A stretch of DNA of 64,000 nt from Hadesarchaea archaeon (GTDB lineage Archaea > Hadarchaeota > Hadarchaeia > Hadarchaeales > Hadarchaeaceae), in the NCBI GenBank assembly GCA_029259175.1, contig JAPDJH010000004.1:62001-126000 (forward strand), read 5' to 3'. Below are positions 9,629 to 27,640 of the stretch, piece by piece. The notes beneath the pieces were generated by a model. The model ran no database searches. It was given only the letters and a program-made list of their open reading frames with translations, and had not been told where the DNA came from. How positions within the stretch are numbered: position 1 is the stretch's first letter; each line of letters begins with the position of its first letter. A program made the translations under genes and the position numbers.

Positions 9629-11715
9629 TCTAACATTCTCTTAAAGATCTCCATTTTTACACGTTTGATCTTGGCTTTTTCGTTTGGTCCTATCTTCTCG
9701 AGCAAGCGTCCAGTACCGTCCGCTATTCCTATGACTCTAGTAGGATTAGAGATTGAATCCACAACGACGTCACCTTTTTCACCTACAAGTCCTCCAGCTA
9801 CGACAGGCACACCAGCAATCTTTTTGTATCCGGCGTTTTTCTCTACTACTTCATCGGTTTCCAATACGTTTACTACTTCGCCTGAAAGACCAGCACGCAT
9901 ATCAACTCTATAGATGTTTATATGTTTCCTATGTGCGGCCCTCACGGCATCGGGTGTTATGGATCCTACTGCTGCATCCAAAATTAATGTATTGGGTCTC
10001 AAATTGCGAACTATTTTCTCATTTATTATGGGTTTTCGTAACGCAAAACTGATAAGTATGTCAATTTTGTTACAAATTCGTGGTAAATCAGTAGCAAAAT
10101 TTATAATCCGGGATCCCTCTTTTTTAAGTAAATTTAAGGCTTCAACTCCTCTTTGGAGCTTTTCTTTATCTGGATCCCATAAAATTATTTCACCGCCGCG
10201 CTCAGCCAAATTTAGCGTTAGTTTGAAGCTTAACGAGTTACATCCGCATATTAAGATTTTTTTGCCGTTTATTTCTGTGAGTCGAGACAAAAGAGTTGCA
10301 ACAGCGTTGACCCAAGCATCGGTCTCTTTATATAAAAGTATTTTACTTTTCGTAATCTCTTTTTTCAGGGTTTCATATAATCTAGGCGCTCTGACAATGC
10401 TTTCGGCATCCAATAGAATAAAGTCAACAAATCCATCGGCTGTTCTTGCGACTTCTATGGCCTGTTTTTCAGTGAGAAGCTCGGCGTTTCCAATGATATT
10501 TGTTGCACTTTCACGAACAACCGGAAAAACAGGCGATTTTCTAGGTTTCAATGTAAGAGAAATCGTTAAAACACTCTCCTTATGCTTTTTCTTTGAAAGA
10601 GATTGCAACTCAGAGGCGATCCTTTTAGCTGCAGCCCGAATAGTTGGGATGGAAAAATCTCCCACTTTGAAATATGTTTTTAAATCTTTTTCAGAAAGTT
10701 TTAATGTTCTTAGTTTTTGTTTTTCTTTTTTTAACTCTCTGGCGGCGGACATCGCCAATTCTTCAGACACGTGGACAACATCTTTTTCTGAGACTTTGAT
10801 GATGAGTTCTCTTGGATCTATGCCATACTTTTTTGCTGCTTTATAGACATTTTTCAAAAATTTTGAGTGGAAGAAAGCATACCCAGCGGTGATATCGATA
10901 GGACTCACTCCTTTCTCTCTAAGAAGAGGTCTAATTAACTTTTCGCTTAAATCCATTATTTTATGAATATCAATTCCAAGATCATAACCCATCTTTTTGA
11001 GAATCGTTAATAAAATTTCAGTACAAGCATTGCCACCGCTTCTTCCAATCCCCTGCATAGAACAATCCAGAATAGTTGCACCCACTTCTAAAGCTGCCAA
11101 ACAATTTGCGTGAACTAATGAGAGATTATTATGACCATGAAAGCCTATTCGAACATTGGTAGCTTCTCGGACAGCGTTCACGTATGTTTTCACATCAGAC
11201 GGAAGCATGCCTCCAGCTGAGTCCACGATAGTGACCACATCTGCGCCCCAAGTCTCAGCCATTTTCGCACATTCGGCTAATTTCTTAGGTTTCAGTGCAT
11301 AAGATTTCATTAAGTTTGAAAACACATACATGTCCAATCTTTTAGCATATTTGATGTAAGGTTCAGCACGATGAATTTCTGGAGCGTTCGTACCGATTCT
11401 AACAAAATCCATTCCATAGTCGGAAGCCAATTTTAAATCTCGTTTGCGCCCTATGCCCGGAATAAAGAACATGCCGAATTTGGCTTTTTTGAGAACACTG
11501 GATGCCGCTTCTAAATATTCCTCATCGGTTGCGGCGGCTTTTCCTTCTCCAGCATTAGAAGCGTTTAACCCTAGACCGTGTCCAATTTCAATAAGTCGGA
11601 TGCCTGCTTTTTCCAATCCTGCCACAATAACAGCTGTATCCTCCGCCGTGAACTGAAAATCTATAACATAACTACCGTCTCGCAAAGTACACTCTAGTAA
11701 GTCTAACCTTTTCAT
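9625..11715 (-). CDS. Aldolase (DRE-TIM/MhpE-like) fused to a Rossmann oxidoreductase
   Basis: A 696-residue two-domain protein. Residues 1 to about 340 are a DRE-TIM metallolyase like 4-hydroxy-2-oxovalerate aldolase: ECTLRDGSY, GFHGHNNLSLVHANCLAAL and QGIGRSGGNA carry the metal and catalytic residues. Residues about 390-696 hold a dinucleotide-fold domain with GKKILICGCNSLSF, ILWDPDKEKL, and VAGGLVGEKGDVVVD near the end. The ATG overlaps the upstream aminotransferase stop (ATGA), with GGAGG 7 nt before it. The family joins or splits 2-oxo acids and aldehydes; here it may make or modify a keto-sugar or acyl precursor for the glycan. The exact reaction is unknown. Confidence 0.75.
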   Translation of the reverse strand: MKRLDLLECTLRDGSYVIDFQFTAEDTAVIVAGLEKAGIRLIEIGHGLGLNASNAGEGKAAATDEEYLEAASSVLKKAKFGMFFIPGIGRKRDLKLASDYGMDFVRIGTNAPEIHRAEPYIKYAKRLDMYVFSNLMKSYALKPKKLAECAKMAETWGADVVTIVDSAGGMLPSDVKTYVNAVREATNVRIGFHGHNNLSLVHANCLAALEVGATILDCSMQGIGRSGGNACTEILLTILKKMGYDLGIDIHKIMDLSEKLIRPLLREKGVSPIDITAGYAFFHSKFLKNVYKAAKKYGIDPRELIIKVSEKDVVHVSEELAMSAARELKKEKQKLRTLKLSEKDLKTYFKVGDFSIPTIRAAAKRIASELQSLSKKKHKESVLTISLTLKPRKSPVFPVVRESATNIIGNAELLTEKQAIEVARTADGFVDFILLDAESIVRAPRLYETLKKEITKSKILLYKETDAWVNAVATLLSRLTEINGKKILICGCNSLSFKLTLNLAERGGEIILWDPDKEKLQRGVEALNLLKKEGSRIINFATDLPRICNKIDILISFALRKPIINEKIVRNLRPNTLILDAAVGSITPDAVRAAHRKHINIYRVDMRAGLSGEVVNVLETDEVVEKNAGYKKIAGVPVVAGGLVGEKGDVVVDSISNPTRVIGIADGTGRLLEKIGPNEKAKIKRVKMEIFKRMLD

Positions 11716-12818
11716 TCCATTTCCTCCAAGACGTTTAATAGCACGTTGGCACTTCGGATTATGTATTCCTTTGGAAGCGAAGGATCCACCCAAAGATTAA
11801 TTACATGTTTCCCAAAATATTTTGCTCTAACGAATAATTGAGGATCCTGCTTCCTTCCTGAAAAATACCAACGATGCACAGGAGGATACCAATTGCTTAT
11901 ATGTATGCCTTTCTTCCTAACGCGTTCTGTAACCATGTCCTGATTATTTGTCTTCAAAAGAAAGGTGTATCTCCAAGGAGTCCAATGCCAATGTTTGTAT
12001 TTCGGATGGATTATATGTTTGTGTTTCAAAAGTCTACAATAAGTTTGTGCATATTCTCTTCTTTTCTTAATATAAAATTCCAGCTTCGGGATCTCACGAG
12101 CAATAGCTTTAAGATAAACCCGAGTTACCCTGAAAATGTACATTTTTTTGAAAATTTGGGGCAACGGTAAGAAAAGTCTGTCTAATTCTTCGTTTTCTTT
12201 AGTAAGAGGATACAAGGAGTAATATAATTTTCGGTAGAGTGTTTCTAAAGATTTAAAATTAGTTGGCCGAACTGGAAGTTTTCTAATTTCCTTTTTTATG
12301 TGGTGAGCTAGTGTATTCTCATCTGTAAGCAGAGCGCCGCCGCCGCCACAATCTAGTATTTTCGTGTGGCCAAAACTAAAGATAGAAACTTGACCGAAAG
12401 ATCCAACTTTTTGACCTTTATACTCGCTTCCCATAGCTTGTGCAGCATCTTCTATCACAAACAGATCATTGTTTGATGCTATTTTGAGAAAACGCTCTAT
12501 CTTGGCAGGATATCCGTATAGATGAGGGACAATCATTCCCGCAACATCATCTTCTAACCTGAGTATTTTTTCTACCGATCGGAAACTCATATTGAAGTCG
12601 TTTAAATCTATATCGCAAAAAATAGGTTTATACCCACCATAAAGCACAGAGTTTGGAACACTAGGGCTAATAATAGTTGGAATTATTACTTTTTTGCCCG
12701 AATAACCGTTTTTTGACAATGCTTTTAGAGCAACGTAAATCGCAGCAGTTCCTCGACCAGTCATGAAGCAGAAACGTCTATGAGTATAAGCTTTTAACCA
12801 TTCTTCAACATTTTTCAT
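11712..12818 (-). CDS. DegT/DnrJ/EryC1-family aminotransferase
   Basis: A 368-residue PLP enzyme that would aminate a keto nucleotide sugar. TGRGTAAIYVALKAL binds the phosphate, VIEDAAQAMGSEYKG carries the Asp for the pyridine ring, and SFGHTKILDCGGGGAL has the Schiff-base Lys (about residue 170). It overlaps the deacetylase gene upstream by 4 nt and the aldolase fusion downstream by 4 nt. The same deacetylase-then-DegT pairing recurs at 25515-27628. Confidence 0.85.
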   Translation of the reverse strand: MKNVEEWLKAYTHRRFCFMTGRGTAAIYVALKALSKNGYSGKKVIIPTIISPSVPNSVLYGGYKPIFCDIDLNDFNMSFRSVEKILRLEDDVAGMIVPHLYGYPAKIERFLKIASNNDLFVIEDAAQAMGSEYKGQKVGSFGQVSIFSFGHTKILDCGGGGALLTDENTLAHHIKKEIRKLPVRPTNFKSLETLYRKLYYSLYPLTKENEELDRLFLPLPQIFKKMYIFRVTRVYLKAIAREIPKLEFYIKKRREYAQTYCRLLKHKHIIHPKYKHWHWTPWRYTFLLKTNNQDMVTERVRKKGIHISNWYPPVHRWYFSGRKQDPQLFVRAKYFGKHVINLWVDPSLPKEYIIRSANVLLNVLEEME

Positions 12819-13789
12819 TTAATGTCCCTCAAGATACACTTCTTAACATCTTTTAGCCTAATAAACTTACTTTTTTTTCCGACATTTTTACATTCAGATA
12901 TTATAAAACGCAAATTTTTTTCGACTTCTTTTTCATCAAAGGAAATTAATGGATGCCAAGTTTTCCCCATTTCTGGCAAAACTTCAAATGGATGAACTAC
13001 GGTAACCAACACATCATATTTACGTATATGTTCCCGAAGACCCGTGGCAAGCACATGATTGTAATAGCTCAAATTTACGTATCTCCAACGAGGTTTAGAA
13101 TCGTAACTTACTCGTGTCCTTACTGTGGTCATGGGTACTTCTAATATACCAATACTCCTCTTCTCATCAAAGATTCGGTAATTTGTTGGAGCAGGATAGT
13201 AAGGGGTTTGAGGAGTCCCTCTCCAATCAATCATTTTGAGTTTATCTCTTCTAAATCTATGAGGAATTGCCGTCGAATCTATTTTAAGCCCAAGTTCCGC
13301 TAAACACTTCATAACTTCATTTGACATGAACGCCTCACCAATGCGCGAACTTTGCGGTATAAATCCCAAGTCGATCATCCGGTGGAAGGATTCTCTCAGT
13401 TGTCTGGTGAGATATTCTGGTCTAGTCTCCAGTGTCCAGTATTTCCCAACTCGACGGTATAAATGTGGATGAAAAGCTATCTCGTGGCCTTTTAGACTTA
13501 GTTTTTTCCACAAGTTTTTATAAGAAATCAGAATATGACCAGCGTCCCCATACAATTTTTCTAGCTGAAAGTCTACTCGGATAAACCATGTTATTTTGGG
13601 ATTTCGTCCAGAGCTATCAGCAACTTTTTCAAATATCTTCAATAGCTTTGGAATTCCTTTTCTAAGACCAAGCCAACCATCTATATCACGAACTTCGGGC
13701 GTTTTCTTATTTTGATAGTAATATACATCATTTTCGACATCAACAGAGATGATTATGTGTAAAGTTCGAGATTTTTCCCGCTTTGTCAT
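12815..13789 (-). CDS. Polysaccharide-deacetylase-fold protein
   Basis: A 324-residue NodB-like TIM-barrel protein. IIISVDVENDVYYY gives the first metal Asp, KGHEIAFHPHLYR gives the His pair of the HxxxH-type site, and TVVHPFEVLPEMG near the end gives the last catalytic His. Such enzymes remove acetyl groups from amino sugars, or act as related carbohydrate esterases. The ATG is 5 nt after the ATP-grasp gene upstream. No signal peptide is visible, so it would work in the cytoplasm on a precursor. The motif spacing departs from classic NodB, so the substrate is open. Confidence 0.7.
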   Translation of the reverse strand: MTKREKSRTLHIIISVDVENDVYYYQNKKTPEVRDIDGWLGLRKGIPKLLKIFEKVADSSGRNPKITWFIRVDFQLEKLYGDAGHILISYKNLWKKLSLKGHEIAFHPHLYRRVGKYWTLETRPEYLTRQLRESFHRMIDLGFIPQSSRIGEAFMSNEVMKCLAELGLKIDSTAIPHRFRRDKLKMIDWRGTPQTPYYPAPTNYRIFDEKRSIGILEVPMTTVRTRVSYDSKPRWRYVNLSYYNHVLATGLREHIRKYDVLVTVVHPFEVLPEMGKTWHPLISFDEKEVEKNLRFIISECKNVGKKSKFIRLKDVKKCILRDIK

Positions 13790-13794
13790 CCGCT

Positions 13795-14988
13795 CTAATT
13801 TTGGGTTATAAATTTTATTTTTTTCTCAGCCATTTTTGCTATTTTCAATGCATGTTCTCGATTATTTCCAAGGGAGATAATATGTCCAATTCGGTCATCG
13901 CCACACCTCAGTGGTCTTATAATATCTCCTGGTTTTACGTAAATATCAATTTCATAAATCCCACTTATTTTTTTCGCAGAAGCTACACCCACTACTTTTC
14001 TCAATCTCCCGGGTGTATTTTTGAAAAACAACAAAACAGAACCTTTTTTCTTCGTTTTTTTAAGATTGGGTTTTTCCCCAACTGCCAAATTTATAGTAGC
14101 TTCCAAAACATCCACTCCTGTAATATTCGGGATAATATCAGTGAAAACTTTGAAGCCAGCACCTCTAGCACCCAACTCGATTAACATAGGGCCTTTTTCC
14201 GTCATCATCATTTCTATATGTGCTGGACTGTTATCAATGCCAACAGCTTTCGTCGCTTTTTTTGCTACTGTTTCTATTTTTCTTATCCATCTCTCGCTAT
14301 TTTCAAATTTTGATGGAAAACACACCAATGTGTCGACTAGATAAGGCGGCGGTGTTTTTTCCTTATCAGATGTGACTAAAATAATTTTTTTTCGTTTATA
14401 CACAAATTCTTCCACACTAATGGGGCACCCTTCCATAAACTTTTCAACCAGTATTTTTCCACAGCGCGAGTGTTTTTTTGCCCATTTGAACGCAAATTCT
14501 AGTTGTTTCCAATTTTCCACTTTGCTAACCCCTCTCGCTCCAGCATTATCGACTGGTTTCACAACCACCGGGAACCCGAAGTCCCGAATCGTTCTTTTAG
14601 CTTCTTTTAAACTAAACACTGGATGAAAAGCTGGAGAAGGCACGTTAGCTTTTTTGAAACACTTTCGCTGAAGTTCTTTATTGTTTGAGATTTTTGCTAC
14701 CTGTTTCTTTATTCCTACCAGCCCCAATTCTTCTGCAATAGTAGCTACCGTAGGAAGTGCTATCTCGGACGCTATTGTGGTTACCCCATCGATCTTGTAT
14801 TTTTTTGCTATTTTTAAGCAACCTTTTATGTTCTTGATGTCCATACATATGGGCACATCGGCTATTCGAAGGCCGGGTGCATGTGGATTTTTATCTATTG
14901 CTACAATTTTTAGGCCCATTTCTTTTGCTTTCAAAATGCCTGGCAGTTGAAATCGGCCAGCGCCGACAAACATTATCGTTTTGATCAC
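13795..14988 (-). CDS. ATP-grasp ligase of the glycan locus
   Basis: A 397-residue ATP-grasp enzyme of the PurK/CarB-like class. FVGAGRFQLPGI opens a Rossmann-like N-domain. FPVVVKPVDNAGARGVSKV is the ATP-binding glycine-rich loop, and HIEMMMTEKGPMLIELGARG carries the Mg-binding Glu residues. The C-terminal 80 residues look like a separate small domain. The start is GTG 14988, three nt after GGGAGG. Such ligases join a carboxylate to an amine; between a deacetylase and the cytidylyltransferase it could attach an amino acid or other acid to an amino sugar (inference). Confidence 0.75.
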   Translation of the reverse strand: MIKTIMFVGAGRFQLPGILKAKEMGLKIVAIDKNPHAPGLRIADVPICMDIKNIKGCLKIAKKYKIDGVTTIASEIALPTVATIAEELGLVGIKKQVAKISNNKELQRKCFKKANVPSPAFHPVFSLKEAKRTIRDFGFPVVVKPVDNAGARGVSKVENWKQLEFAFKWAKKHSRCGKILVEKFMEGCPISVEEFVYKRKKIILVTSDKEKTPPPYLVDTLVCFPSKFENSERWIRKIETVAKKATKAVGIDNSPAHIEMMMTEKGPMLIELGARGAGFKVFTDIIPNITGVDVLEATINLAVGEKPNLKKTKKKGSVLLFFKNTPGRLRKVVGVASAKKISGIYEIDIYVKPGDIIRPLRCGDDRIGHIISLGNNREHALKIAKMAEKKIKFITQN

Positions 14989-14997
14989 TTTCCTCCC

Positions 14998-15759
14998 TTA
15001 ACGCGTAAGTTTATCACTAAGTAAAGATTTTATATATCCCTCATTCCGGACTATTTGTTTATTTATTTCCAATAAACGAGGATTTTTTTCCAAGAAATTG
15101 AGAATATCATCTAAGTAGAAAATTCCTCCTTCTTTGTATAAACTACGGAACACTTCCGAAACCACGTAAAAATCTCTTTCATCATCTACACATAATCTGA
15201 TATGAGAAAGATCTCTATCGTTCTCTACCGTATATATCCGAAATTTATCAGGGTTTTTCCAAATGTAGGGAGTAACATGTTCCCTTTCTGACGCCCACTT
15301 TGCTTCTCGCCAAGCTTTTTCCAAAGCATTAAACGAAAAGACCTCGGTCTCGACAATTCCATCAGGAAATGTAGGGCCGCTTCTCACATAATCAAATTTG
15401 TCACGATTTTTTAGATAATGTTCAATTATTTTATCCACAAGTTTCGGATCTATTAATGGACAATCGGCAGTTAATCTCACTATTGGATCCACACCAAATT
15501 TTTTTGCAGCTTGATAATATCGATCCAAAACATCTTCTTCGCTTCCTCGAAAGCTATCTAATCCATTAGCTGTTGCAAACTCAACTATAACATCGTCCTC
15601 CTTTTTTTGAGTAGTTGCGATTATTATTTTTTTTATAAACTTGGACCATTTGAGACGATAAATCATATGCCACAACATTGGTTTTCCTAGAATGTTTTTC
15701 ATCACTTTGCCAGGAAGGCGTGTTGACCCCATTCTCGCTTGGATGATTGCGGCCAGCAT
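14998..15759 (-). CDS. spsF: SpsF-like acylneuraminate cytidylyltransferase
   Basis: A 253-residue nucleotidyltransferase. IIQARMGSTRLPGKVMK is the CTP-binding signature of the SpsF/NeuA group, and RLTADCPLIDPKLVD holds the metal-binding Asp residues. These enzymes activate nonulosonic or related keto sugars as CMP derivatives, so this would be the activation step of the nonulosonate pathway (PseF/LegF role). The neighbours are the PseG/SpsG-like protein upstream (3 nt gap) and the ATP-grasp ligase downstream. The sugar activated is not known. Confidence 0.8.
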   Translation of the reverse strand: MLAAIIQARMGSTRLPGKVMKNILGKPMLWHMIYRLKWSKFIKKIIIATTQKKEDDVIVEFATANGLDSFRGSEEDVLDRYYQAAKKFGVDPIVRLTADCPLIDPKLVDKIIEHYLKNRDKFDYVRSGPTFPDGIVETEVFSFNALEKAWREAKWASEREHVTPYIWKNPDKFRIYTVENDRDLSHIRLCVDDERDFYVVSEVFRSLYKEGGIFYLDDILNFLEKNPRLLEINKQIVRNEGYIKSLLSDKLTR

Positions 15760-15762
15760 AAG

Positions 15763-16770
15763 CTAACCCTCCTCCAAATGTTTCACAATTATCTGCTTGA
15801 TTCTCTTTTTGCCAGCGCCATCAATTAATTTTTTCTGTTTCATGCTCATGCTCCGTCTTTTTCCCCGGTCCGATATTACCTCATGCAAAATTTTTAACTT
15901 CCTCTGTAGGGGTAGCACATTTTCCAGCATCACCGCGGCCCCCCGTTCTTCGAATATTTTTCCAAATCTTTTTTCGCGGAAGTTCTGAGGCATGATGATG
16001 GCTGGAGTCCCCAACGCGCAAAACTCTAGTAGTGTGGTCCCCGCACCGCAAAATCCACAGTCTGCTGCAAAAATCAGTCCTCCCAAGTTCTGAACGTGTG
16101 AGTACAAGTTTATGTTTTTGTGCTGATGTTCCAATTCTTTTGTTTTTTTACCAAAAGCTGGCCCAACAACAACATCTATTTCTATATCCTCATTTTTTCC
16201 AAGTTTTGCGAGGAGATCCAAGGCTTCTTTTGTGTGAAAACATGGATCAGCTGAACCGAAAGCTATCAGTATTCTCTCTACTTTTTGCTTAATGGGCTTA
16301 TTTTTTTTAGCGTATTCGATAAACTCATCTCGGATTATGGCGTATTCTAATCCTTCATAATAATTTTTTACCACTTGTTGTGGATTAACAACTTTCAAAT
16401 TTTGGTTAAAAAGATTTATTATCACGTCTAATTGGTGAGAATATCTGAAATAATCTAAACCCACAATCAGGATCTTTCCGACAGCTCTTTTTATCACCCT
16501 CGGATTAAAATCGGGCTTCGGCTGATCTATTACAAGTGCTTTTACCGCATTCTTTTTGATAGCCTCTAATAGACTCTGCTCGATTTTGCCCCGGATTATT
16601 ATGGGAGTACGACCTGCCTTTTCAATCATTTTAACCACCATCGGATGGTCATTGCAACAAAAGCAAACGTTAAAATCTTCAAACTCTCGGGCCAGCTCCA
16701 AAGAGCGAATCACGTGTCCCAATCCTCGTTTTTCATCTCCCGCAACTTTAAACAGGATGCTTGACATCAT
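15763..16770 (-). CDS. pseG: PseG/SpsG-like UDP-sugar hydrolase
   Basis: A 335-residue GT-B-fold protein of the PseG/SpsG family. GDEKRGLGHVIRSLELA near the N-terminus keeps the G-x-G-H loop whose His is catalytic in PseG, AFGSADPCFHT opens the second domain, and FCGAGTTLLEFCALG is the UDP-binding segment. PseG releases UDP from the 2,4-diacetamido sugar before NeuB/PseI-type condensation. Context with NeuB, SpsF and a PseB-like gene supports that role; SpsG proteins of spore-coat loci are the alternative. Confidence 0.75.
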   Translation of the reverse strand: MMSSILFKVAGDEKRGLGHVIRSLELAREFEDFNVCFCCNDHPMVVKMIEKAGRTPIIIRGKIEQSLLEAIKKNAVKALVIDQPKPDFNPRVIKRAVGKILIVGLDYFRYSHQLDVIINLFNQNLKVVNPQQVVKNYYEGLEYAIIRDEFIEYAKKNKPIKQKVERILIAFGSADPCFHTKEALDLLAKLGKNEDIEIDVVVGPAFGKKTKELEHQHKNINLYSHVQNLGGLIFAADCGFCGAGTTLLEFCALGTPAIIMPQNFREKRFGKIFEERGAAVMLENVLPLQRKLKILHEVISDRGKRRSMSMKQKKLIDGAGKKRIKQIIVKHLEEG

Positions 16771-16772
16771 TC

Positions 16773-17777
16773 TCAGCTACGCACCTTTACAAATCTGCCC
16801 AATTTGGCCGATTTCTTAGCCGCAACAACCAACTCTAGGATTTTTTTGCCCTCATGCCCGTCGATTAGGGGTTTTTGTCTTCTACGTATACACTCTATGA
16901 AGTGTCGGAGTTCAGCTAGATACATGTCATTTATTTTGAAGTTGTACTTTGTAATTTTCCAGGGGCCTCCTCGGGAGATGCCCACTAAATTCTTTGAAAA
17001 TTCCCAAAGCAAGTTCCCTTTTTCCCCTGTGGCTTCGATTCTGTTTGTATACACCCTACTCAAGTAATTCAGCTCAATCGTTACCACAGTCCCGCCTCTC
17101 AGCATGAAAATAAAAGTGGCGAGATCTTCTGTGTCTATATCTAAATCGCTGATTTTTACATAATGGCAAGCAACTTTTTCCGCCTCCCCAAATATCCATC
17201 GCATCATATCGAGTGAATGAGTCCCATCGAGCAGGACCCCTCCTCCTAAAGCTCTCCTAGCGCTATACTCTTTGCGGTAGTCTGATCTCGGATGCCAATA
17301 CGGAAGGTAGTATCCCCCCACTATTCGGGCAGAGTAAACCTTACCGATAGCTCCTCTCGTTACTAGTTGCCTTAGCTTAATTATCCCCGGATTAAATCTA
17401 TAACACATGCCAACCATTAGAATTAACTTTTTCTTCTCGACAAGACGCAATAGTGAATCGACGCCTTTTAAATCGGCGGCCAAAGGCTTTTCTACGAAAA
17501 TATCGACGCCTGTCTTTGCTAGTTGTTTGGACATTGATAAATGAAGACTCGTGGGAGTACATACAAATGCTGCTTGCAGAGATGGGTTGTTTGAAATCGC
17601 CTTTTCAAAATCCGTGTACAACTCTCGAATCCCAAATCTTCTAGAAATCTGTTGTAGCCGGTTTTTGTCTTTATCACATGCAACTATATCTCTCATCCCT
17701 AATGCAAACAGGTTTGATATGTGCCGGCTCCCAATCGATCCACAACCAATAACTAAAAATTTCAAAGTCTCCCTCAC
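16773..17777 (-). CDS. Gfo/Idh/MocA-family sugar oxidoreductase
   Basis: A 334-residue NAD(P)-dependent dehydrogenase. FLVIGCGSIGSRHISNL binds the nucleotide, FVEKPLAADLKGVDSLL is the EKP motif carrying the catalytic Lys, and GGVLLDGTHSLDMMRWIFG is the C-domain signature with its His. It starts at GTG 17777, which overlaps the stop of the class III aminotransferase (GTGA). It would oxidise or reduce a sugar hydroxyl or keto group; with the aminotransferase it could convert a hydroxyl to an amine (inference). Confidence 0.82.
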   Translation of the reverse strand: MRETLKFLVIGCGSIGSRHISNLFALGMRDIVACDKDKNRLQQISRRFGIRELYTDFEKAISNNPSLQAAFVCTPTSLHLSMSKQLAKTGVDIFVEKPLAADLKGVDSLLRLVEKKKLILMVGMCYRFNPGIIKLRQLVTRGAIGKVYSARIVGGYYLPYWHPRSDYRKEYSARRALGGGVLLDGTHSLDMMRWIFGEAEKVACHYVKISDLDIDTEDLATFIFMLRGGTVVTIELNYLSRVYTNRIEATGEKGNLLWEFSKNLVGISRGGPWKITKYNFKINDMYLAELRHFIECIRRRQKPLIDGHEGKKILELVVAAKKSAKLGRFVKVRS

Positions 17778-19096
17778 GCGGTGAGTCTTTTAAAACCTTC
17801 TAAAGCTACCGGTCCCTTCAACATGGAGTAAACTTCTTTTTTCTTCATCCCAGCTATTTTTTTAAATACCATTTCAACACTCTTGAAATATTTATTCAAA
17901 TGCGATTTGCGATGGCTATAGGAAACGTAAACCGTTTTGGTCGCTAAAAAACCTTTTTCCAGCATTTCTTGAGTGAAGAAGGTGTAAAGAGCCTGATTTA
18001 GCTCTCCGTAATTGAACTTGAAAGTAGGAACCGAGGGGAGTCCCACTACCTCCAACTCTAATCCACAACTCTCAGCAAGTTCCACCCAACCTCTCTTTAT
18101 TTCCTTGCCCACCTTACAGATATGTCGTGGTACTTGACATTCACTCATCTTGGTAATGGTTGCGATAGCGGCTGCAGGACCCACACGTTCTGTCCAATAC
18201 GTGCTGCTTATGAAACTGTCTTGAGCCACGTCCATAATTTCTCTCTTTCCTATCACTGCAGCCATTGGAAAACCGTTGCTCATCGCTTTGCCAAAAACGG
18301 CAAGATCAGGATACACCCTATAGTACATATGAATGCCGCCCACATTGACGCGCCAACCTGAAGAGACCTCGTCAAAAATGAGAACAGCTCCGATACGATC
18401 AGCTATTTTTCTGACCTTTTGCAAGAATTTGTTCTTAGGCTCTCGTTCTCTTCTGGGCTCCATTACAATAGTTCCGATATCGTTATTATCCACAATTTTT
18501 TCAAGTTCTTCAATTTTGTTGTAACGAAATGGTATCGCGGTTCCTTTCAAAGCCCGCGGAACTCCAAGAGGCTTGAGGCCGGGAAGCAAATGTCCATCTA
18601 AGGCTTTCTCGTCGGCCAAGTTTGCGGCCAGATACCAATCAGACCAACCGTGGTAGCCGCAAAATGCTACTTTATCTTTCCCCGTGCTTGCCCTAGCAAT
18701 CCTCACTGCCACTGCCATGGCTTCACCGCCAGTCCTCGCATATCTCACCATGTCTGCCCAAGGATGAAGTTTTAACAAAAGTTCTGCTAGCTCGACCTCT
18801 TCAGGTGAATTTAGAGTGCACATAGAACCTCCATCTATCACATCCTTGACAGCCCTGTTAACATCGGGATCAGCGTAGCCGAGAATGCATGAACCGACAC
18901 CCATGTAAGACATATCCAAATATTGCTTTCCTTCTAGCGTCCATACCCTAACACCTTTCGCCTTCTTGAAGTATGCTGGCCACAATTTTGGCAAAAAATG
19001 TTCAGAACGTTTTGAGAGCATCTGGGTTCCCCCGGGGATTATCTTTTTTGCTTTTTCCCAAAGTTTTGCCCCAACATTTTTGGATTCGCTCGCCAT
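17774..19096 (-). CDS. Class III aminotransferase (glutamate-1-semialdehyde-mutase-like)
   Basis: A 440-residue PLP enzyme. KKIIPGGTQMLSKR opens like HemL, RTGGEAMAVAVRIARA binds the phosphate, LIFDEVSSGWRV carries the pyridine Asp, and FGKAMSNGFPMAAVIG holds the Schiff-base Lys. It lies between NeuB and the Gfo/Idh/MocA enzyme, far from any haem genes, so a role on a sugar or keto acid of the glycan pathway is more likely than tetrapyrrole synthesis. The start ATG has GGTGA a few nt upstream. Confidence 0.8.
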   Translation of the reverse strand: MASESKNVGAKLWEKAKKIIPGGTQMLSKRSEHFLPKLWPAYFKKAKGVRVWTLEGKQYLDMSYMGVGSCILGYADPDVNRAVKDVIDGGSMCTLNSPEEVELAELLLKLHPWADMVRYARTGGEAMAVAVRIARASTGKDKVAFCGYHGWSDWYLAANLADEKALDGHLLPGLKPLGVPRALKGTAIPFRYNKIEELEKIVDNNDIGTIVMEPRREREPKNKFLQKVRKIADRIGAVLIFDEVSSGWRVNVGGIHMYYRVYPDLAVFGKAMSNGFPMAAVIGKREIMDVAQDSFISSTYWTERVGPAAAIATITKMSECQVPRHICKVGKEIKRGWVELAESCGLELEVVGLPSVPTFKFNYGELNQALYTFFTQEMLEKGFLATKTVYVSYSHRKSHLNKYFKSVEMVFKKIAGMKKKEVYSMLKGPVALEGFKRLTA

Positions 19097-19100
19097 CTGC

Positions 19101-20150
19101 TCACCCTATTTTATCCCACGTTATCGGCTCATATCTTTTGATATTTTTCTTCGCTCTTTTTCCAATTACTTTGTGTAAATACTTCGGCTCCAGCCCAAGT
19201 GCAGGTCTTAAAATTGTTAGCATTTCCTTTTTCAAAACGGTTCCGGCCGGAATATCCGTTGCCGCGAATATACTTCTTCTCCCAAGAAATCTTCCTTCTT
19301 TTTCGCCTTCAAGAACTTCTTTAATACCTCGACCACGCATCTTCTCTACTTCACGAATGCTATTTACCATTTTCATAAGCTCTCGAGGTTCCAAAGCAAA
19401 AAAATGATCTGGCCCCCTCAGCTTACGACTAATCGTGAAATGTTTTTCTATCATTACTGCACCCAACGCTACTGCAGCAATTGAGGCTTCTATCCCCAGA
19501 GTATGATCTGAAAACCCTACCGGCAACCGAAATTTCTTCTCAAGTGTTTTCATTACTAAAAGGTTGACATTCTCAGGAGGGGTTGGATACATAGACACAC
19601 AGTGCAATAAGATTACATCTTTATTCCCCGTCTTTTTTATTGTATTCACCGCCTCTCGGACTTCTTGTAGGGTTGATACGCCGGTGGAAACTATCATAGG
19701 TTTTCCCTTGCGAGCCATGTATCTAATCAGCGGAAGATTTGTCAAATCTCCCGAAGCCACTTTAAAGGCCGGAACTCCAATCTCGTCTAAAAGATCTACC
19801 GCCTCTTCATCGAAAGGGGATGACAGAAAAATTAGTCCGCGCTTCTCTGCATATTCTGCGAGTATCCGGTGCCATCGGCGAGGAAGTTCCACGCGCTTAA
19901 AACTCTCATACATGGCGGCGCATCTGGCAGGTGTTTCTTCATCTCCGGTTCCCGGAACTAACCTTGCTACCAACTTGTCAGCGCTAAAAGTTTGAAACTT
20001 TATGGCATCGGCACCCGCTTTTGCTGCAATATCTATTAGGCGCTTGGCCTGCTCCAATTTTCGATCATGATTGGAACCTGCCTCAGCGATTATAAAAACG
20101 GGTTCACCATTGCCCACGAACCTCTCGCCTATTTTTATTTTTTTAGTCAT
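19101..20150 (-). CDS. neuB: NeuB/PseI-family nonulosonate synthase
   Basis: A 349-residue synthase that condenses phosphoenolpyruvate with a 6-carbon amino sugar to make a 9-carbon acid. PVFIIAEAGSNHD, AIKFQTF, KVASGDLTN, GFSDHTLG and MIEKHFTI are the TIM-barrel signatures. The C-terminal SAF (antifreeze-like) domain is seen in GRRSIFAATDIPAG. ATG 20150 is chosen because GGTGA lies 5 nt upstream; a GTG three codons earlier is in frame. The start overlaps the PseC-like gene by 8 nt. Sialic, legionaminic and pseudaminic types cannot be told apart here. Confidence 0.9.
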   Translation of the reverse strand: MTKKIKIGERFVGNGEPVFIIAEAGSNHDRKLEQAKRLIDIAAKAGADAIKFQTFSADKLVARLVPGTGDEETPARCAAMYESFKRVELPRRWHRILAEYAEKRGLIFLSSPFDEEAVDLLDEIGVPAFKVASGDLTNLPLIRYMARKGKPMIVSTGVSTLQEVREAVNTIKKTGNKDVILLHCVSMYPTPPENVNLLVMKTLEKKFRLPVGFSDHTLGIEASIAAVALGAVMIEKHFTISRKLRGPDHFFALEPRELMKMVNSIREVEKMRGRGIKEVLEGEKEGRFLGRRSIFAATDIPAGTVLKKEMLTILRPALGLEPKYLHKVIGKRAKKNIKRYEPITWDKIG

Positions 20151-21291
20151 GAAGTTCACCTATTGTCTCTTTAACTATATCTACTACTCTATTCACATCT
20201 CTCTTTGTCATTCGCGGGAACAAGGGAAGAGTAAGCACCCTTTTAGCGATGTCCTTGGTAACCGGAAGATCTCCTGATTTGAAGCCACGTTTCTTGTAAA
20301 ACGTGAATGTGTATACTGGAGGATAATGAACGGTTGCTCCTATTCCTTTAGACCTTAATGTAGAAACAAACCCGTTTCGATCAATCATAGGATCTAATAA
20401 CACTGTATAGAGGTGCCAGGCGTGTTTAACATTCGGTTTTTCAACAGGCAGGGTAAGCATCGGTGTTCCTTGAAGTTTTTTTGTATAGGTCTCCGCCAAT
20501 TCCCTTCTTTTTCTCAAGAATTTGTCCAGCTTTCGTAGCTGGGAAACTCCCAACGCTGCTTGAAAATCGGTCATCCGATAATTCCTACCCAAAAGCCGCA
20601 CATCATAAGACCAAGAATGACGGCTATCGAATCTTTCCAAGGCACTTCGATCTATCCCGTGATTCCTTAGAATCCTCATCCTATCAGCCAATCTCTTATC
20701 ATTAGTCACACACATACCCCCCTCGCCCGTTGTTACGTGCTTCACTGGGTGAAAACTGAATATTGTTATATCCGCGAAGCTTCCTACTTTTTTTCCTCTA
20801 TACTCGGCTCCGAGTGCATGGGCGGCATCTTCAATTAAGTACAAGTCATGTTCTTCTGCTATCTCTTTTATCTCTGCGATATCGCACGGATGGCCGGCGA
20901 AATCTACGTAAAGTATCGCTCTTGTTTTGGCAGTTATTTTTTTTCTTATGTCGTCTGGATCGATATTATAAGTATCCTTCTGGATATCAGCAAATACTGG
21001 CTTCAAATTGTTGAAAAGAATGGCGTTAACTGTTGCCACGAAAGTGAAAGGTGTGGTTATCACCTCAGCTTTTTTTAGTCCAAGGGACGCAATGGCAATG
21101 TCGAGTGCACTTGTCCCGGAATTTACTGCGATCCCGTATTTACAATTTACATATTTACACACTGCTTCTTCAAACTCTTCTACCTTACGGCCCATCACTA
21201 TCCAATCACTTTTCAGGACACTCACTACTTGGTCAATGTCCTCCCTATCGATCCAATGTAGCCCGTAGGGGAGAAAATAACGTGGTGCCAT
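20143..21291 (-). CDS. PseC/DegT-type nucleotide-sugar aminotransferase
   Basis: A 382-residue PLP aminotransferase. VNSGTSALDIAIASLG binds phosphate, LIEDAAHALGAEYRG has the ring Asp, and FSFHPVKHVTTGEGGM holds the Schiff-base Lys. This sequence style matches PseC/LegC and related enzymes that aminate C4 of UDP-4-keto-6-deoxy-GlcNAc. With the PseB-like dehydratase downstream in this locus it supplies the expected second step. ATG 21291 has GGTGA about 6 nt upstream. Confidence 0.85.
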   Translation of the reverse strand: MAPRYFLPYGLHWIDREDIDQVVSVLKSDWIVMGRKVEEFEEAVCKYVNCKYGIAVNSGTSALDIAIASLGLKKAEVITTPFTFVATVNAILFNNLKPVFADIQKDTYNIDPDDIRKKITAKTRAILYVDFAGHPCDIAEIKEIAEEHDLYLIEDAAHALGAEYRGKKVGSFADITIFSFHPVKHVTTGEGGMCVTNDKRLADRMRILRNHGIDRSALERFDSRHSWSYDVRLLGRNYRMTDFQAALGVSQLRKLDKFLRKRRELAETYTKKLQGTPMLTLPVEKPNVKHAWHLYTVLLDPMIDRNGFVSTLRSKGIGATVHYPPVYTFTFYKKRGFKSGDLPVTKDIAKRVLTLPLFPRMTKRDVNRVVDIVKETIGELHD

Positions 21292-21297
21292 ACGTAT

Positions 21298-22377
21298 TCA
21301 CCTGATTATTCGCTTAGCAAATTCATTCACGCGGCTCTTCATAATTCTGAGGAAGTATTCTCGGTTCCAGAACTTTTCTCCCCGGAACATCGGATAGACC
21401 TTTCCTCCAAACCCTGATTTGAAAAAAGTAATGTTTTTCTCTTTCTCAGAAGGCATATCATATAGCAGATCACCAAACTGCTGAAGTCCTACTTCGAAAA
21501 ATTCGCAACCCTTTCTTTTTAACCACATCATCGTCTCCCACAAAAGCAAAGAAGAGATTGGAACATCTGCATGTTCAGGATCATTTGCGCTTGAACCATA
21601 ATAGCACGCGTTCTTATAATAAAACATATACCCAAACCCAACATACTCGTCTTTTCGTCTTGCAGCGGATAGAAAACCGTGACCCTGTTTTATCCATTCG
21701 TACCACATCTCGAAGGTTACCAAGGGCCGAGTAATTCTTCCTGCAGCTTTGTGGTGCAACTTCCTATATTTTTCATAAATTTCTTTTGTTATCTTGTCCT
21801 TGTCAAAAACCTCAAAGGTGAGTTCGCGCTTAGCTTTTTTTACATTCCACCTATTGCCTTTTCGCATATCATTCCAAAGGTTATTTTTCCTCAAATCGAT
21901 TATGCGCGTGTTCAAAGAACAATCGTTAAATCCGTATTTCATTAATATATTAAAAGTAGGAAATTCTCCACGAAGCGATATAGGTATGAGAGGTGTTAAG
22001 TAGACAAGCGAGTATGCCACGTCTTCTTCTCTTGCTATTTCATCAAATATGGCGAAAATATAGCCGAGAATTTTTTCCCTTTCCTTTTCCGAAATGTTGC
22101 TTTTTAGTGCAGGAAAAAGAATTGGCCCCTCCGCCATTCTAAATACCTTATATGTTTTATTTTCTATCTCGTGATTCTCGACAAATAGTGGAACTACTGC
22201 TATTATCTCTCGGTTGCGCTTAAGAAAGAAACTCTGTGACTCTGTTTTCAAATGCGGCTTATAATGAACGCAGTATTCTATCCAATTAGAGGTATGCCAA
22301 AACCATGCATAATCACTTTGGAAACAGAATTCATCCCATTCTGGACGATTGGCCTTTTTCAAGTACTCAATATCCAT
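21298..22377 (-). CDS. FemAB/GNAT-like acyltransferase
   Basis: A 359-residue protein with a double GNAT/FemAB layout. EWDEFCFQSDYAWFWHTSNW resembles the entry of the Acetyltransf_6 family, RKGNRWNVKKAKRE is the basic helix seen in FemAB-like proteins, and the segment YVGFGYMFYYKNACYYGSSA is the GNAT core of the second half. It may N-acylate the amino sugar (a PseH/LegH role) or attach an amino acid. ATG 22377 is chosen: GGTGA lies 5 nt before it, while an earlier start at 22407 would overlap the next gene by 25 nt. Confidence 0.65.
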   Translation of the reverse strand: MDIEYLKKANRPEWDEFCFQSDYAWFWHTSNWIEYCVHYKPHLKTESQSFFLKRNREIIAVVPLFVENHEIENKTYKVFRMAEGPILFPALKSNISEKEREKILGYIFAIFDEIAREEDVAYSLVYLTPLIPISLRGEFPTFNILMKYGFNDCSLNTRIIDLRKNNLWNDMRKGNRWNVKKAKRELTFEVFDKDKITKEIYEKYRKLHHKAAGRITRPLVTFEMWYEWIKQGHGFLSAARRKDEYVGFGYMFYYKNACYYGSSANDPEHADVPISSLLLWETMMWLKRKGCEFFEVGLQQFGDLLYDMPSEKEKNITFFKSGFGGKVYPMFRGEKFWNREYFLRIMKSRVNEFAKRIIR

Positions 22378-22382
22378 GGGTT

Positions 22383-23315
22383 TCACCCGGTTATAGATTT
22401 CATCCATTCAGTTGTTTTTTTTATTCCTTGGTTCAAATCTGTCTTGGGTCTCCAACCCAACAACTTCTTAGCTTTAGAATAATCACATACCAATTTTCTT
22501 ATTTCTGCTTGTGGATGCGGATGACGCACATGCCGAATCCTCTTCTTATCCCTACATATGAGAAATGCCAACCGATTGATAGAAATGTCCTGCCCTGTTC
22601 CAGCGTTGATCACCTCCCCCACCGCTTTTTTGTTAGACATAGCTCTGAACAAAAAGTCGGCACAGTCTTCCACATAAAGCAAATCTCTCGTTTGCTTCCC
22701 GTCGCCAAAAACCGTGATAGGTTTCCCCTCCAGTTTCTCCCGTATAAATATACTTACAACGCCTCCTTCCGCATCACTTCTTTGATACGGTCCATAGGTG
22801 TTGAATGGTCTCGTAACTACCACCGGCAACCCATACGTTCTGAAATAGGAAAGAACCAGCTCTTCTCCGGCGAGCTTCGAGCTAGCATAGGGGGACTTCG
22901 GTTTTAACGGATGGGTTTCGCTTATTGCTGCTTTTTTGGCACTATCATAAACCATGCACGTGCTAACAAAAACTAATTTGGTGTCGTGTCTTCTGCACAT
23001 CTCTAACAGATTGTACGTCCCTACAATGTTAATCTGAAATGTCTCTCTAGGATTGTCAATCGACTTTTGAACATTTATTTGGGCTGCGAGATGAATACAC
23101 ACTTTTATGCCTTTGAAAATCCTTGCGAGTTTTTTTGAATTCAAAATATCCGCTTTAACAAACGAGAACTTCTTGTTGTCAGAAAATTCCAAAATATTTT
23201 TTGGACTTCCGCTGCTTAAGTTATCGTATGCTATTACTTCATGCCCTCGAGATAGAAGTTCCTTTACCACCCATCTTCCGATAAATCCAGCACCGCCAGT
23301 AACCAAAATTTTCAA
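22383..23315 (-). CDS. GalE-like NAD-dependent sugar epimerase
   Basis: A 310-residue extended SDR. KILVTGGAGFIGRWVV binds NAD, VSTCMVYDSA and YASSKLAGEEL give the active site with Tyr-x-x-x-Lys, and RPFNTYGPYQRS is the substrate loop. The start is TTG 23315, supported by GGAGGGG 5 nt upstream and a TTGA overlap with the dehydratase stop. It is similar in style to the gene at 29520. The nucleotide sugar it epimerises is not known; UDP-GlcNAc or UDP-Glc are usual. Confidence 0.83.
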   Translation of the reverse strand: MKILVTGGAGFIGRWVVKELLSRGHEVIAYDNLSSGSPKNILEFSDNKKFSFVKADILNSKKLARIFKGIKVCIHLAAQINVQKSIDNPRETFQINIVGTYNLLEMCRRHDTKLVFVSTCMVYDSAKKAAISETHPLKPKSPYASSKLAGEELVLSYFRTYGLPVVVTRPFNTYGPYQRSDAEGGVVSIFIREKLEGKPITVFGDGKQTRDLLYVEDCADFLFRAMSNKKAVGEVINAGTGQDISINRLAFLICRDKKRIRHVRHPHPQAEIRKLVCDYSKAKKLLGWRPKTDLNQGIKKTTEWMKSITG

Positions 23316-24352
23316 AGCAGCCCCTCCGGCAGGGCACTATCCAAAAGTTTTTTGATTTCTTCTTTTTTCAGAGGAGCTTCATCACAGGAACGATATGATT
23401 TGGGCTTGGCTTTTTTTGCGCCCGGATAAATAAACTTTATATTTTTGGAAACAAGTTCACGCATTTCTGGCAAAATTATAAACATCTCCTTGGTTTCCAA
23501 TGCTCGACGCGCTTCATCTTCAGTCATTAGTTCTTCATACAGTTTCTCTCCAGCTTTTCTACCAATTATTTTGATCTTATTCACCCGGTGCCCAAATTTG
23601 GTAGCGTATTTTCGACTCATTACTTCGGCTAAGTCAAGAATACGAATAGCTGGCATCTTGAAAACGAAAATTTCTCCGCCCCGAGCCATTTCAGTTGCCT
23701 TGATAAGCAGTCGGACCGCCTCTCTACTGGACATCACGAATCGCGTCATATTAGGATCGGTAATTGTCAACGGCTTTCCCTGCTCCAGCTGTTTGAGGAA
23801 AGTATTTGTAACAGATCCGCTGGACCAGAGCACATTTCCAAATCTAACACTCGAAAAAACCGATTTCCTCGGTCCTTTATAATAGTTGGCAGCAATGATC
23901 AGCCGCTCGCAAAGAAGTTTGGTCGCCCCCATCACGTTTACAGGGTTCACAGCTTTATCGCTGCTCGTGAATATTACTTTCTCAACCTCGGCTTGGATAG
24001 CTACATCTATCACATTCTCCGTGCCTATAACGTTCGTTTTTACAGCCTCAAATGGATTGTACTCACAACTCTCGACGTGTTTCAAGGCCGCCGCATGAAA
24101 GATGATGTCTATGCCGTCGACAGCGTAGCGCAATCTATCTTTGTCTTTTATATCACCCAGTAAAAATCGAACATTCTCCTCTCCATCCAACTGTTGGCGA
24201 AGGACAAATAGCCGTGTTTCATCAGAGTCAAAGATACGTACGACTTTTGGCCCTAATTTTAATAGTTCCTTGACTAGTACGGATCCTATTGATCCAGCGC
24301 CTCCTGTGACCAAGACTCTTTTCCCCTCTAGAAACTTGGATCTTTCTTTCAT
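23312..24352 (-). CDS. pseB: PseB/CapD-like UDP-GlcNAc 4,6-dehydratase
   Basis: A 346-residue soluble SDR. GKRVLVTGGAGSIGSVLVKE binds NADP, HAAALKHVESCEYNPFEAV is the PseB/CapD fingerprint, and FTSSDKAVNPVNVMGATKL carries the active site. The usual catalytic Tyr is Met here (MGATK), as in WbpM/CapD proteins, although the length is that of the short PseB form. It would make the UDP-4-keto-6-deoxy sugar used by the PseC-like enzyme. A TATA-like element and GAGGT ribosome-binding site precede it, so it probably begins the minus-strand nonulosonate transcript. Confidence 0.85.
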   Translation of the reverse strand: MKERSKFLEGKRVLVTGGAGSIGSVLVKELLKLGPKVVRIFDSDETRLFVLRQQLDGEENVRFLLGDIKDKDRLRYAVDGIDIIFHAAALKHVESCEYNPFEAVKTNVIGTENVIDVAIQAEVEKVIFTSSDKAVNPVNVMGATKLLCERLIIAANYYKGPRKSVFSSVRFGNVLWSSGSVTNTFLKQLEQGKPLTITDPNMTRFVMSSREAVRLLIKATEMARGGEIFVFKMPAIRILDLAEVMSRKYATKFGHRVNKIKIIGRKAGEKLYEELMTEDEARRALETKEMFIILPEMRELVSKNIKFIYPGAKKAKPKSYRSCDEAPLKKEEIKKLLDSALPEGLL

Positions 24353-24383: not shown

Positions 24384-24391
24384 CATATAAA
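24384..24391 (-). promoter_or_regulatory. TATA-like promoter of the nonulosonate operon
   Basis: On the minus strand TTTATATG lies about 36 nt before ATG 24352, leaving room for a short leader that contains GAGGT. It is in the 180-nt gap 24353-24532, the largest gap in the minus-strand arm; I see nothing else in that gap. Confidence 0.45.
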
Positions 24392-27628: not shown

Positions 27629-27640
27629 GAGGTCTCCTTC

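What the first reader, a model, noticed from the sequence alone, without database searches (positions are those of the whole stretch)
13795..24352. Nonulosonate pathway with extra enzymes: candidate new acidic sugar
PseB-like, PseC-like, PseG-like, NeuB and SpsF-like genes cover dehydration, amination, UDP release, condensation and CMP activation. Inserted in the same coupled run are a class III aminotransferase, a Gfo/Idh/MocA dehydrogenase, a FemAB/GNAT protein and an ATP-grasp ligase, none of which belongs to the standard sialic, legionaminic or pseudaminic routes as I know them. Together they could add a further amine and ligate an acid to it, giving an uncommon nonulosonic acid.
Basis: partly seen in the sequence, partly recalled or inferred. 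Interest (0 to 1): 0.75.

Follow-up and report, generated by a model that had tools for sequence, protein, structure and literature searches.

The report
Extra-amine sialic-acid-like sugar pathway
An archaeon carries a gene cluster for an acidic surface sugar related to sialic acid, and inside it sits a widespread but uncharacterised enzyme pair that probably swaps one hydroxyl of the sugar for an extra amine, so it may make a new member of this sugar family.

Summary
In detail: ten tightly packed genes at 24352-13795 (- strand) encode a nonulosonic-acid (NulO) pathway, and the same gene run continues to 9625. The PseB-like gene and the neighbouring epimerase are best matched by Pen and Pal of Bacillus thuringiensis, followed by PseC, a PseG-like hydrolase, NeuB and SpsF. 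The class III aminotransferase (AT3) and the Gfo/Idh/MocA dehydrogenase are a real extra pair, but not peculiar to this genome. AT3 sits with NeuB or SpsF in 73 of 87 loci, in more than 25 phyla, and is fused to SpsF in 16. Its redox partner is either Gfo/Idh/MocA or an aldo/keto reductase (AKR), almost never both. In an independent sample of AKR genes, 15 adjoin AT3, five adjoin a short-chain dehydrogenase (SDR), and none both. Best model: the redox enzyme oxidises a NulO hydroxyl and AT3 aminates the ketone, while AKR plus SDR would epimerise. Only C4 and C8 are free; C8 is likelier. FemAB has the FemX fold and probably does the usual N-acylation; the ATP-grasp ligase is a rarer accessory. 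Product, position and configuration are inferred, not shown. AKR plus class III aminotransferase beside pse genes is on record (Aeromonas); I found no assigned function.

The parts
23312..24352 (-). Pen/PseB-like UDP-GlcNAc 4,6-dehydratase
   Evidence: Polysacc_synt_2; PDB best 6bwc (Pen) 306 bits, 2gn4 230 bits
22383..23315 (-). Pal-like SDR, partner of Pen towards UDP-4-keto-6-deoxy-L-AltNAc
   Evidence: PDB best 6bwl (Pal) E 2e-116, 392 bits, next 191; 58% identical to the Pal-position gene of a Priestia Pse cluster
21298..22407 (-). FemAB/tandem-GNAT N-acyl or N-aminoacyl transferase, probably in the PseH slot
   Evidence: Acetyltransf_6; AlphaFold model pLDDT 86, Foldseek best FemX E 6e-15 and aminoacyl-tRNA-dependent Sbb17
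20143..21291 (-). PseC-type DegT aminotransferase (hexose C4, later NulO C7)
   Evidence: TIGR03588 PseC 447.4 bits, cut-off 423.5
19101..20159 (-). NeuB-family nonulosonic acid synthase
   Evidence: PF03102 316 bits + SAF; PDB best SpsE 246, PseI 211 bits; G/S at specificity positions
17774..19096 (-). AT3: class III PLP aminotransferase, proposed to aminate a keto-NulO
   Evidence: PF00202; PLP Lys270/Asp242 kept, GSAM Glu segment deleted; linked to NeuB or SpsF in 73 of 87 homologous loci
16773..17777 (-). Gfo/Idh/MocA dehydrogenase, proposed to oxidise a NulO hydroxyl for AT3
   Evidence: PF01408 + C-terminal domain; alternates with AKR beside AT3
15763..16770 (-). PseG-like UDP-sugar hydrolase
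   Evidence: TIGR03590 PseG 112 bits, below cut-off 153.6
14998..15759 (-). SpsF-type CMP transferase
   Evidence: PF02348 136 bits; PDB best 6oew cytidylyltransferase
13795..14988 (-). ATP-grasp carboxylate-amine ligase with LAL_C2 domain; accessory
   Evidence: PF13535 + PF18603; same architecture in AT3 clusters L040, L043, L060; no homolog above E 1e-25 in 27 other genomes of the phylum
12815..13789 (-). polysaccharide-deacetylase-like protein, same coupled run, role unknown
   Evidence: ORF with 5-nt gap; no Pfam or NCBIfam match; assignment by eye only
11712..12818 (-). second DegT aminotransferase, same coupled run
   Evidence: PF01041 172 bits
9625..11718 (-). 4-hydroxy-2-oxovalerate aldolase fused to a Rossmann-type domain
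   Evidence: TIGR03217 302 bits, cut-off 286, residues 4-332; C-terminal part is homologous to ORFs between NeuB and SpsF in L021, L061, L070

Best explanation
The cluster makes a CMP-activated, Pse/Leg-type 9-deoxy nonulosonic acid with amines at C5 and C7 by the usual order (Pen+Pal, PseC, N-acyltransferase FemAB, PseG-like hydrolase, NeuB, SpsF). In addition, the Gfo/Idh/MocA enzyme oxidises one remaining hydroxyl of the NulO or CMP-NulO to a ketone, and AT3 transaminates it, giving a third amine. Because C1, C2, C3, C5, C6 (ring O), C7 and C9 are already fixed, only C4-OH and C8-OH are available, and only after NeuB has acted; C8 is preferred by analogy with Kdo8N. The ATP-grasp ligase may then couple a carboxylic or amino acid to one of the amines. 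Shown by sequence: enzyme families, operon, conserved AT3-redox-SpsF linkage, partner exchange, fusions. Inferred: substrate, position, order, acyl group.
For: Families and order. AT3 lies with NeuB or SpsF in 73 of 87 loci; AKR only 37, GFO only 15, both 1 (Fisher p 2.8e-5); at least 8 AKR/GFO switches on the AT3 tree. AT3 is fused to SpsF in 16 loci, and in L054 AKR is fused to SpsF directly before an SpsF-AT3 fusion, tying both enzymes to the NulO activation step rather than to UDP-sugars. Independent sample: 23 AKR hits in 396 Bacteroidota genomes, 15 beside AT3, 5 beside an SDR, 0 both. Priestia L099 has the same Pen-Pal-PseC-SpsF-AKR-PseG-PseH-PseI layout with an SDR in place of AT3. A Vibrio with an SpsF-AKR fusion plus a dehydrogenase makes an isomer of PseAc2 with different MS/MS (PMC7371886), as expected if AKR acts on the NulO itself. 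AT3 keeps PLP residues but lacks the GSAM Glu segment. Kdo8N is a precedent for oxidising then aminating C8 of an ulosonic acid (PMC5125639).
Against: No product has been characterised for any AT3 cluster. 20 of 73 NulO-linked loci show neither AKR nor GFO (10 of these have an SDR that could serve). 14 of 87 AT3 loci show no NeuB or SpsF nearby; in some the contigs are short, but four near-identical marine alphaproteobacterial loci have none. The 87 loci were chosen for similarity to AT3. The Vibrio in the MS study is a different cluster and was not examined for AT3; its authors call the data preliminary.
Confidence: 0.6

Rival explanations
1. AT3 and its redox partner build an unusual N-acyl substituent (amino or hydroxy acid), which the ATP-grasp or FemAB enzyme attaches to the C5 or C7 amine; the NulO backbone itself is ordinary.
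For: Class III aminotransferases of the GSA/GABA type act on semialdehydes and keto acids (family knowledge). This cluster has two candidate amine-acylating enzymes and an aldolase fused to a Rossmann domain. Shewanella SfmE, an ATP-grasp protein, contributes to a flagellin modification on a putative NulO (PMC3765264).
Against: Most AT3 clusters have no ATP-grasp homolog (4 of 87) and no constant acyl-activating enzyme, whereas SpsF is nearly constant and fused to AT3 in 16 loci; AKR is fused to SpsF as well.
Confidence: 0.2
2. The cluster makes an ordinary di-amino Pse/Leg, and AT3 plus GFO act on another sugar of the same glycan (for example a 3-amino hexose, as the Gfo/Idh plus PLP pairs WbpB/WbpE and GnnA/GnnB do).
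For: Gfo/Idh plus PLP-aminotransferase pairs on nucleotide hexoses are known (from memory); the window has many other sugar genes.
Against: The AT3-redox pair follows NulO genes through more than 25 phyla with varied surroundings and fuses with the CMP-NulO transferase.
Confidence: 0.1
3. AT3 plus redox act as an epimerase or re-amination system that changes the configuration of an existing amine (C5 or C7) without adding a third one.
For: AKR plus SDR clusters look like epimerising pairs and one such organism makes a PseAc2 isomer.
Against: Oxidising an amine-bearing carbon would need amine loss first, and no deaminase recurs in the clusters.
Confidence: 0.07

Closest known systems
Pen/Pal pseudaminic acid operon of Bacillus thuringiensis
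   Same: Pen and Pal by best PDB match, PseC-type aminotransferase, PseG-like hydrolase, NeuB-family synthase, cytidylyltransferase
   Different: Adds AT3, Gfo/Idh/MocA and ATP-grasp; FemAB where a GNAT would be expected; NeuB carries Gly, not the Pse-type Phe, at the C2-specificity position
Aeromonas group I polar flagellin glycosylation islands (PMC7874193)
   Same: pse genes with an aldo/keto reductase and a class III aminotransferase, in many strains
   Different: AKR instead of Gfo/Idh/MocA; I found no role assigned there to the pair; no sequence from them compared here
Priestia megaterium plasmid Pse cluster (L099)
   Same: Pen, Pal (58%), PseC, SpsF, AKR, PseG, PseI in the same layout
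   Different: SDR in place of AT3, so predicted epimer, not amine
Kdo8N pathway of Shewanella (KdnA/KdnB)
   Same: Works alike in principle: dehydrogenase plus PLP aminotransferase turn a hydroxyl of an ulosonic acid into an amine
   Different: KdnB is an iron-type alcohol dehydrogenase and the substrate is an eight-carbon sugar; not the same families
Bacillus subtilis sps legionaminic acid genes (PMC7439481)
   Same: SpsE/SpsF/SpsG-type enzymes with UDP-linked intermediates; NeuB closest in PDB to SpsE
   Different: No AT3, redox partner or ATP-grasp in the pathway described

Membership tests
Nonulosonic acid (sialic-acid-like) biosynthesis cluster | NeuB-family PEP-dependent synthase | tested here: met
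   PF03102 316 bits plus SAF
Nonulosonic acid (sialic-acid-like) biosynthesis cluster | CMP transferase beside NeuB | tested here: met
   PF02348, SpsF type
Pseudaminic acid pathway, Pen/Pal type | Pen and Pal homologs | tested here: met
   6bwc 306 bits, 6bwl 392 bits, both best
Pseudaminic acid pathway, Pen/Pal type | PseC aminotransferase | tested here: met
   over NCBIfam equivalog cut-off
Pseudaminic acid pathway, Pen/Pal type | PseG hydrolase | tested here: inconclusive
   112 bits, below the cut-off of 153.55
Pseudaminic acid pathway, Pen/Pal type | NeuB of Pse type (Phe after the KxxS motif, Ser at 184) | tested here: inconclusive
   Gly and Ser: one of two; over the PseI cut-off (351 vs 340) but scores higher on NeuB_NnaB (389, cut-off 399.65)
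Legionaminic or neuraminic acid pathway | hydrolysing UDP-GlcNAc 2-epimerase (NeuC/LegG, PF02350) | tested here: not met
   no match in the whole genome, about 91% complete
Glutamate-1-semialdehyde aminomutase (HemL) | HemL equivalog score and the Glu of the FEA segment | tested here: not met
   TIGR00713 212 bits, cut-off 527; Glu segment deleted
Kdo8N system (KdnA/KdnB) | iron-type alcohol dehydrogenase as oxidase | tested here: not met
   the oxidoreductase here is Gfo/Idh/MocA
FemAB/FemX transferases | tandem GNAT fold of FemX | tested here: met
   Foldseek E 5.8e-15, TM 0.65-0.71 to 1ne9; tRNA dependence not testable
L-amino acid ligase type ATP-grasp | ATP-grasp plus LAL_C2 domain | tested here: met
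   PF13535 and PF18603 over cut-off; activity not testable

The most novel reading that the evidence does not exclude
A whole class of triamino nonulosonic acids (8-amino, or less likely 4-amino, forms of Pse/Leg) is made across dozens of phyla by an interchangeable redox enzyme plus AT3, with the same redox enzyme paired with an SDR giving epimers. With two acetyl groups such a sugar has exactly the mass of the known acetamidino derivatives (free acid 333.1536, residue 315.1430), so it could hide in mass-only assignments.
Probability: 0.5. Interest if true: 0.78.

Novelty: new variant of a known kind. Interest (0 to 1): 0.6.

Why it matters
Nonulosonic acids shape archaeal and bacterial surfaces and are recognised by phages and hosts. 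If the model is right, gene content alone would predict whether a strain makes a plain, an epimerised or an aminated NulO, and a common tailoring step would gain a function. It also warns that an aminated diacetyl NulO cannot be told from an acetamidino NulO by mass.

Tried and rejected
AT3 as a haem-pathway GSA aminomutase: rejected by score, missing Glu segment and context. One unique product for all AT3 clusters: rejected, because AT3-linked NeuBs are of several types, and within the host's own phylum one AT3 cluster has a LegG/NeuC-type 2-epimerase (L014) and another a PseI-type NeuB (L013). ATP-grasp as a core enzyme: rejected. A separate SpsF clade for AT3 clusters: the SpsF tree could not test it, only 4 unlinked SpsFs. 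Viral-contig scan with SpsF: no relatives. Profile search of AT3 in PDB at E 1e-60: none. Literature searches for triamino NulO, 8-amino NulO and class III aminotransferase in NulO clusters gave only the Aeromonas and Legionella papers; subscription journals are not held, so earlier work may exist.
Full report
What is there. Ten ORFs on the - strand from 24352 down to 13795 overlap or lie within 9 nt of each other. In transcription order they are a Pen/PseB-like dehydratase, a Pal-like SDR, a FemAB/GNAT protein, a PseC-type DegT aminotransferase, NeuB, a class III aminotransferase (AT3), a Gfo/Idh/MocA dehydrogenase (GFO), a PseG-like hydrolase, an SpsF-type CMP transferase and an ATP-grasp protein with a LAL_C2 domain. 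The run continues with a deacetylase-like ORF (by eye; no family match), a second DegT aminotransferase and a 4-hydroxy-2-oxovalerate aldolase fused to a Rossmann-type domain, down to 9625. The host is an archaeon (full-length archaeal SSU rRNA match) of a phylum with 28 genomes held; the genome is about 91% complete and has one NeuB.

First correction. The two SDR enzymes form a pair. The first is closest in PDB to Pen (306 bits; the PseB-like 2gn4 gives 230) and the second to Pal (392 bits, next best 191). Pen and Pal together make UDP-4-keto-6-deoxy-L-AltNAc in B. thuringiensis and replace PseB (described in PMC7439481; the primary paper is not held). The PseC-type enzyme passes the NCBIfam PseC cut-off. 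No hydrolysing 2-epimerase of the NeuC/LegG family is found in the genome. These point to a Pse-type backbone. NeuB is ambiguous: it passes the PseI cut-off but scores higher on NeuB_NnaB, its best PDB match is SpsE, and at two positions that PMC7371886 relates to specificity it has Gly (Neu/Leg-like) and Ser (Pse-like). The configuration is therefore left open.

The extra pair. AT3 homologs were found at 73% and 68% identity in two relatives of the phylum, at 49-53% on plasmids and viral contigs, and in over 560 places in GTDB genomes, of which the 80 best were kept. Around 87 AT3 loci the recurring layout is Pen/PseB - PseC - redox enzyme - SpsF - AT3 - PseG - NeuB. AT3 is within 9 kb of NeuB or SpsF in 73 loci, from more than 25 named phyla and both domains. 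The redox slot holds an aldo/keto reductase (AKR; Pfam) in 37, a GFO in 15 and both in one (Fisher p 2.8e-5). On the AT3 tree the partner changes at least eight times (quick tree, many weak branches). This kind of exchange suggests that the two families do the same job. AT3 shares an ORF with SpsF in 16 loci. In L054 an SpsF-AKR fusion is followed directly by an SpsF-AT3 fusion.

An independent test. To avoid choosing loci by AT3, the AKR of one cluster was searched in 396 Bacteroidota genomes. Of 23 hits nearly all lie beside NulO genes; 15 adjoin AT3, 5 adjoin a short-chain dehydrogenase (SDR) and none adjoins both within the roughly 1.5 kb flanks held. In 7 genomes checked whole, the AKR has a single match, the one of the AT3 cluster. 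A Priestia plasmid shows the layout Pen-Pal-PseC-SpsF-AKR-SDR-PseG-PseH-PseI, with the Pal 58% identical to the window's. The SDR belongs to the family that also accompanies AT3 in half of the NulO-linked AT3 loci lacking AKR and GFO.

Mechanism. A dehydrogenase plus an aminotransferase converts OH to NH2; a dehydrogenase plus a second dehydrogenase inverts a carbon. The AKR therefore probably makes a keto-sugar whose fate depends on the partner: AT3 aminates, SDR epimerises. Published MS fits this. A Vibrio with PseB, PseC, an SpsF-AKR fusion and a dehydrogenase makes a NulO with the mass of PseAc2 but different retention and fragmentation, which its authors could not explain except as an epimer or by different N positions (PMC7371886; preliminary by their own account). 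Where can the third amine go? GlcNAc supplies N at NulO C5, PseC at C7, Pen/Pal remove the oxygen of C9, C6-O closes the ring, C3 is CH2 and C1 is the carboxylate. Only C4-OH and C8-OH remain. Both become free only after NeuB (C4 is the former hexose C1, C8 the former ring-oxygen carbon C5), which agrees with the fusions to SpsF. C8 is preferred because the Kdo8N pathway oxidises C8 of an ulosonic acid before amination (PMC5125639). This step is inference from pathway chemistry, not data.

AT3 itself. It is a class III enzyme; its best solved relatives are GSA aminomutases at only 139 bits. The PLP lysine (270) and the aspartate (242) are kept. The segment that carries the catalytic glutamate in GSA aminomutase is missing (the role of that glutamate is from general knowledge). 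So it is an aminotransferase rather than an aminomutase.

FemAB and ATP-grasp. The FemAB model (pLDDT 86) has the tandem-GNAT fold of FemX and of aminoacyl-tRNA-dependent Sbb17. FemAB homologs occur in 9 AT3 loci and PseH-like GNATs in 19, both in only 2, often in the same slot after PseC, so FemAB most likely does the N-acylation, possibly with an amino acid. The ATP-grasp gene has relatives with the same LAL_C2 architecture in three other AT3 clusters (L040, L043, L060), mostly beside a methyltransferase gene, but none above E 1e-25 in the other 27 genomes of the phylum. A Shewanella ATP-grasp protein, SfmE, contributes to a flagellin modification built on a putative NulO (PMC3765264). A carboxylate-amine ligation is therefore plausible here but is an accessory.

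Modularity. AT3-linked NeuBs fall into PseI-like, SpsE-like and other groups; 31 of them carry the Phe/Ser Pse signature. In the host's own phylum one AT3 cluster (L013) has a PseI-type NeuB, and another (L014) has a 2-epimerase and a hexapeptide-repeat protein as in Leg pathways. The AT3-redox-SpsF set behaves as a tailoring module that fits different NulO backbones.

What is known. AKR plus class III aminotransferase among pse genes is drawn in Aeromonas flagellin islands (PMC7874193), and PseG, a class III aminotransferase and a cytidylyltransferase lie together in Legionella pneumophila serogroup 6 (PMC3694923). I found no function assigned to the pair, in an open-access library only. The predicted diacetyl amine has the formula C13H23N3O7, the same as acetamidino-acetyl Leg/Pse (free 333.1536, DMB derivative 450.198; published LegAmAc 450.1989), so mass alone cannot separate them.

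Verdict. It is a new variant of a known kind: a NulO pathway with a widespread, uncharacterised tailoring pair. Confidence about 0.95 that it is a CMP-NulO pathway (shown by families and synteny), about 0.6 that the pair adds an amine to the NulO, about 0.45 that the amine is at C8.

Noticed in passing
window 1-30000: GC is 0.38-0.43 from 1 to 28 kb but 0.53-0.56 from 32 kb on: the surface-sugar genes look like an island, probably acquired horizontally.
   Followed up: partly
window 9625-11718 (-): 4-hydroxy-2-oxovalerate aldolase (over the equivalog cut-off) fused to a Rossmann-type domain of about 340 aa. Homologs of the C-terminal part stand between NeuB and SpsF in AT3 clusters L021, L061, L070, where NeuB itself is fused to, or overlaps, a flavin amine-oxidase-like domain.
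   Followed up: partly
window 24533-28822 (-): A second FemAB (PEP-CTERM/XrtA-associated type, 121 bits, below cut-off), a third DegT aminotransferase, a polysaccharide deacetylase and a GT4 upstream of the cluster.
   Followed up: no
window 7709-9628 (+): 639-aa ORF without Pfam match, weakly like LIC12162-family transferases (37.6 bits, cut-off 225): a candidate glycosyltransferase for this sugar.
   Followed up: no
window 24385-24390 (-): TTATAT about 35 nt before the start of the first gene, in the 180-nt gap upstream: possible archaeal promoter, read by eye.
   Followed up: no
L099 (Priestia megaterium plasmid): Complete Pen-Pal-PseC-SpsF-AKR-SDR-PseG-PseH-PseI cluster; the AKR-SDR pair is a candidate NulO epimerase.
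   Followed up: partly
L054 3337-7070: SpsF-AKR fusion overlapping the start of an SpsF-AT3 fusion: two CMP-transferase domains, each with one tailoring enzyme.
   Followed up: partly
L080, L083, L086, L092: Four near-identical marine alphaproteobacterial loci hold AT3 with no NeuB, SpsF or NulO genes within the flanks; unexplained.
   Followed up: no
L005, L006, L008 (viral contigs): AT3-SpsF with a short NeuB, DegT and an SDR but no Pen/PseB, on contigs classed as viral.
   Followed up: no
L013 1-10700: The same-genus relative has a second NeuB, a PseG-like gene, a formyltransferase-like gene, a GNAT and a PseI-type NeuB on the opposite strand, next to its AT3 cluster.
   Followed up: partly
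own genome C2:49066-49752: An STT3-type oligosaccharyltransferase match (27.9 bits, just over cut-off) lies about 13 kb before the window on the same contig, so protein N-glycosylation is a possible use of the sugar.
   Followed up: no
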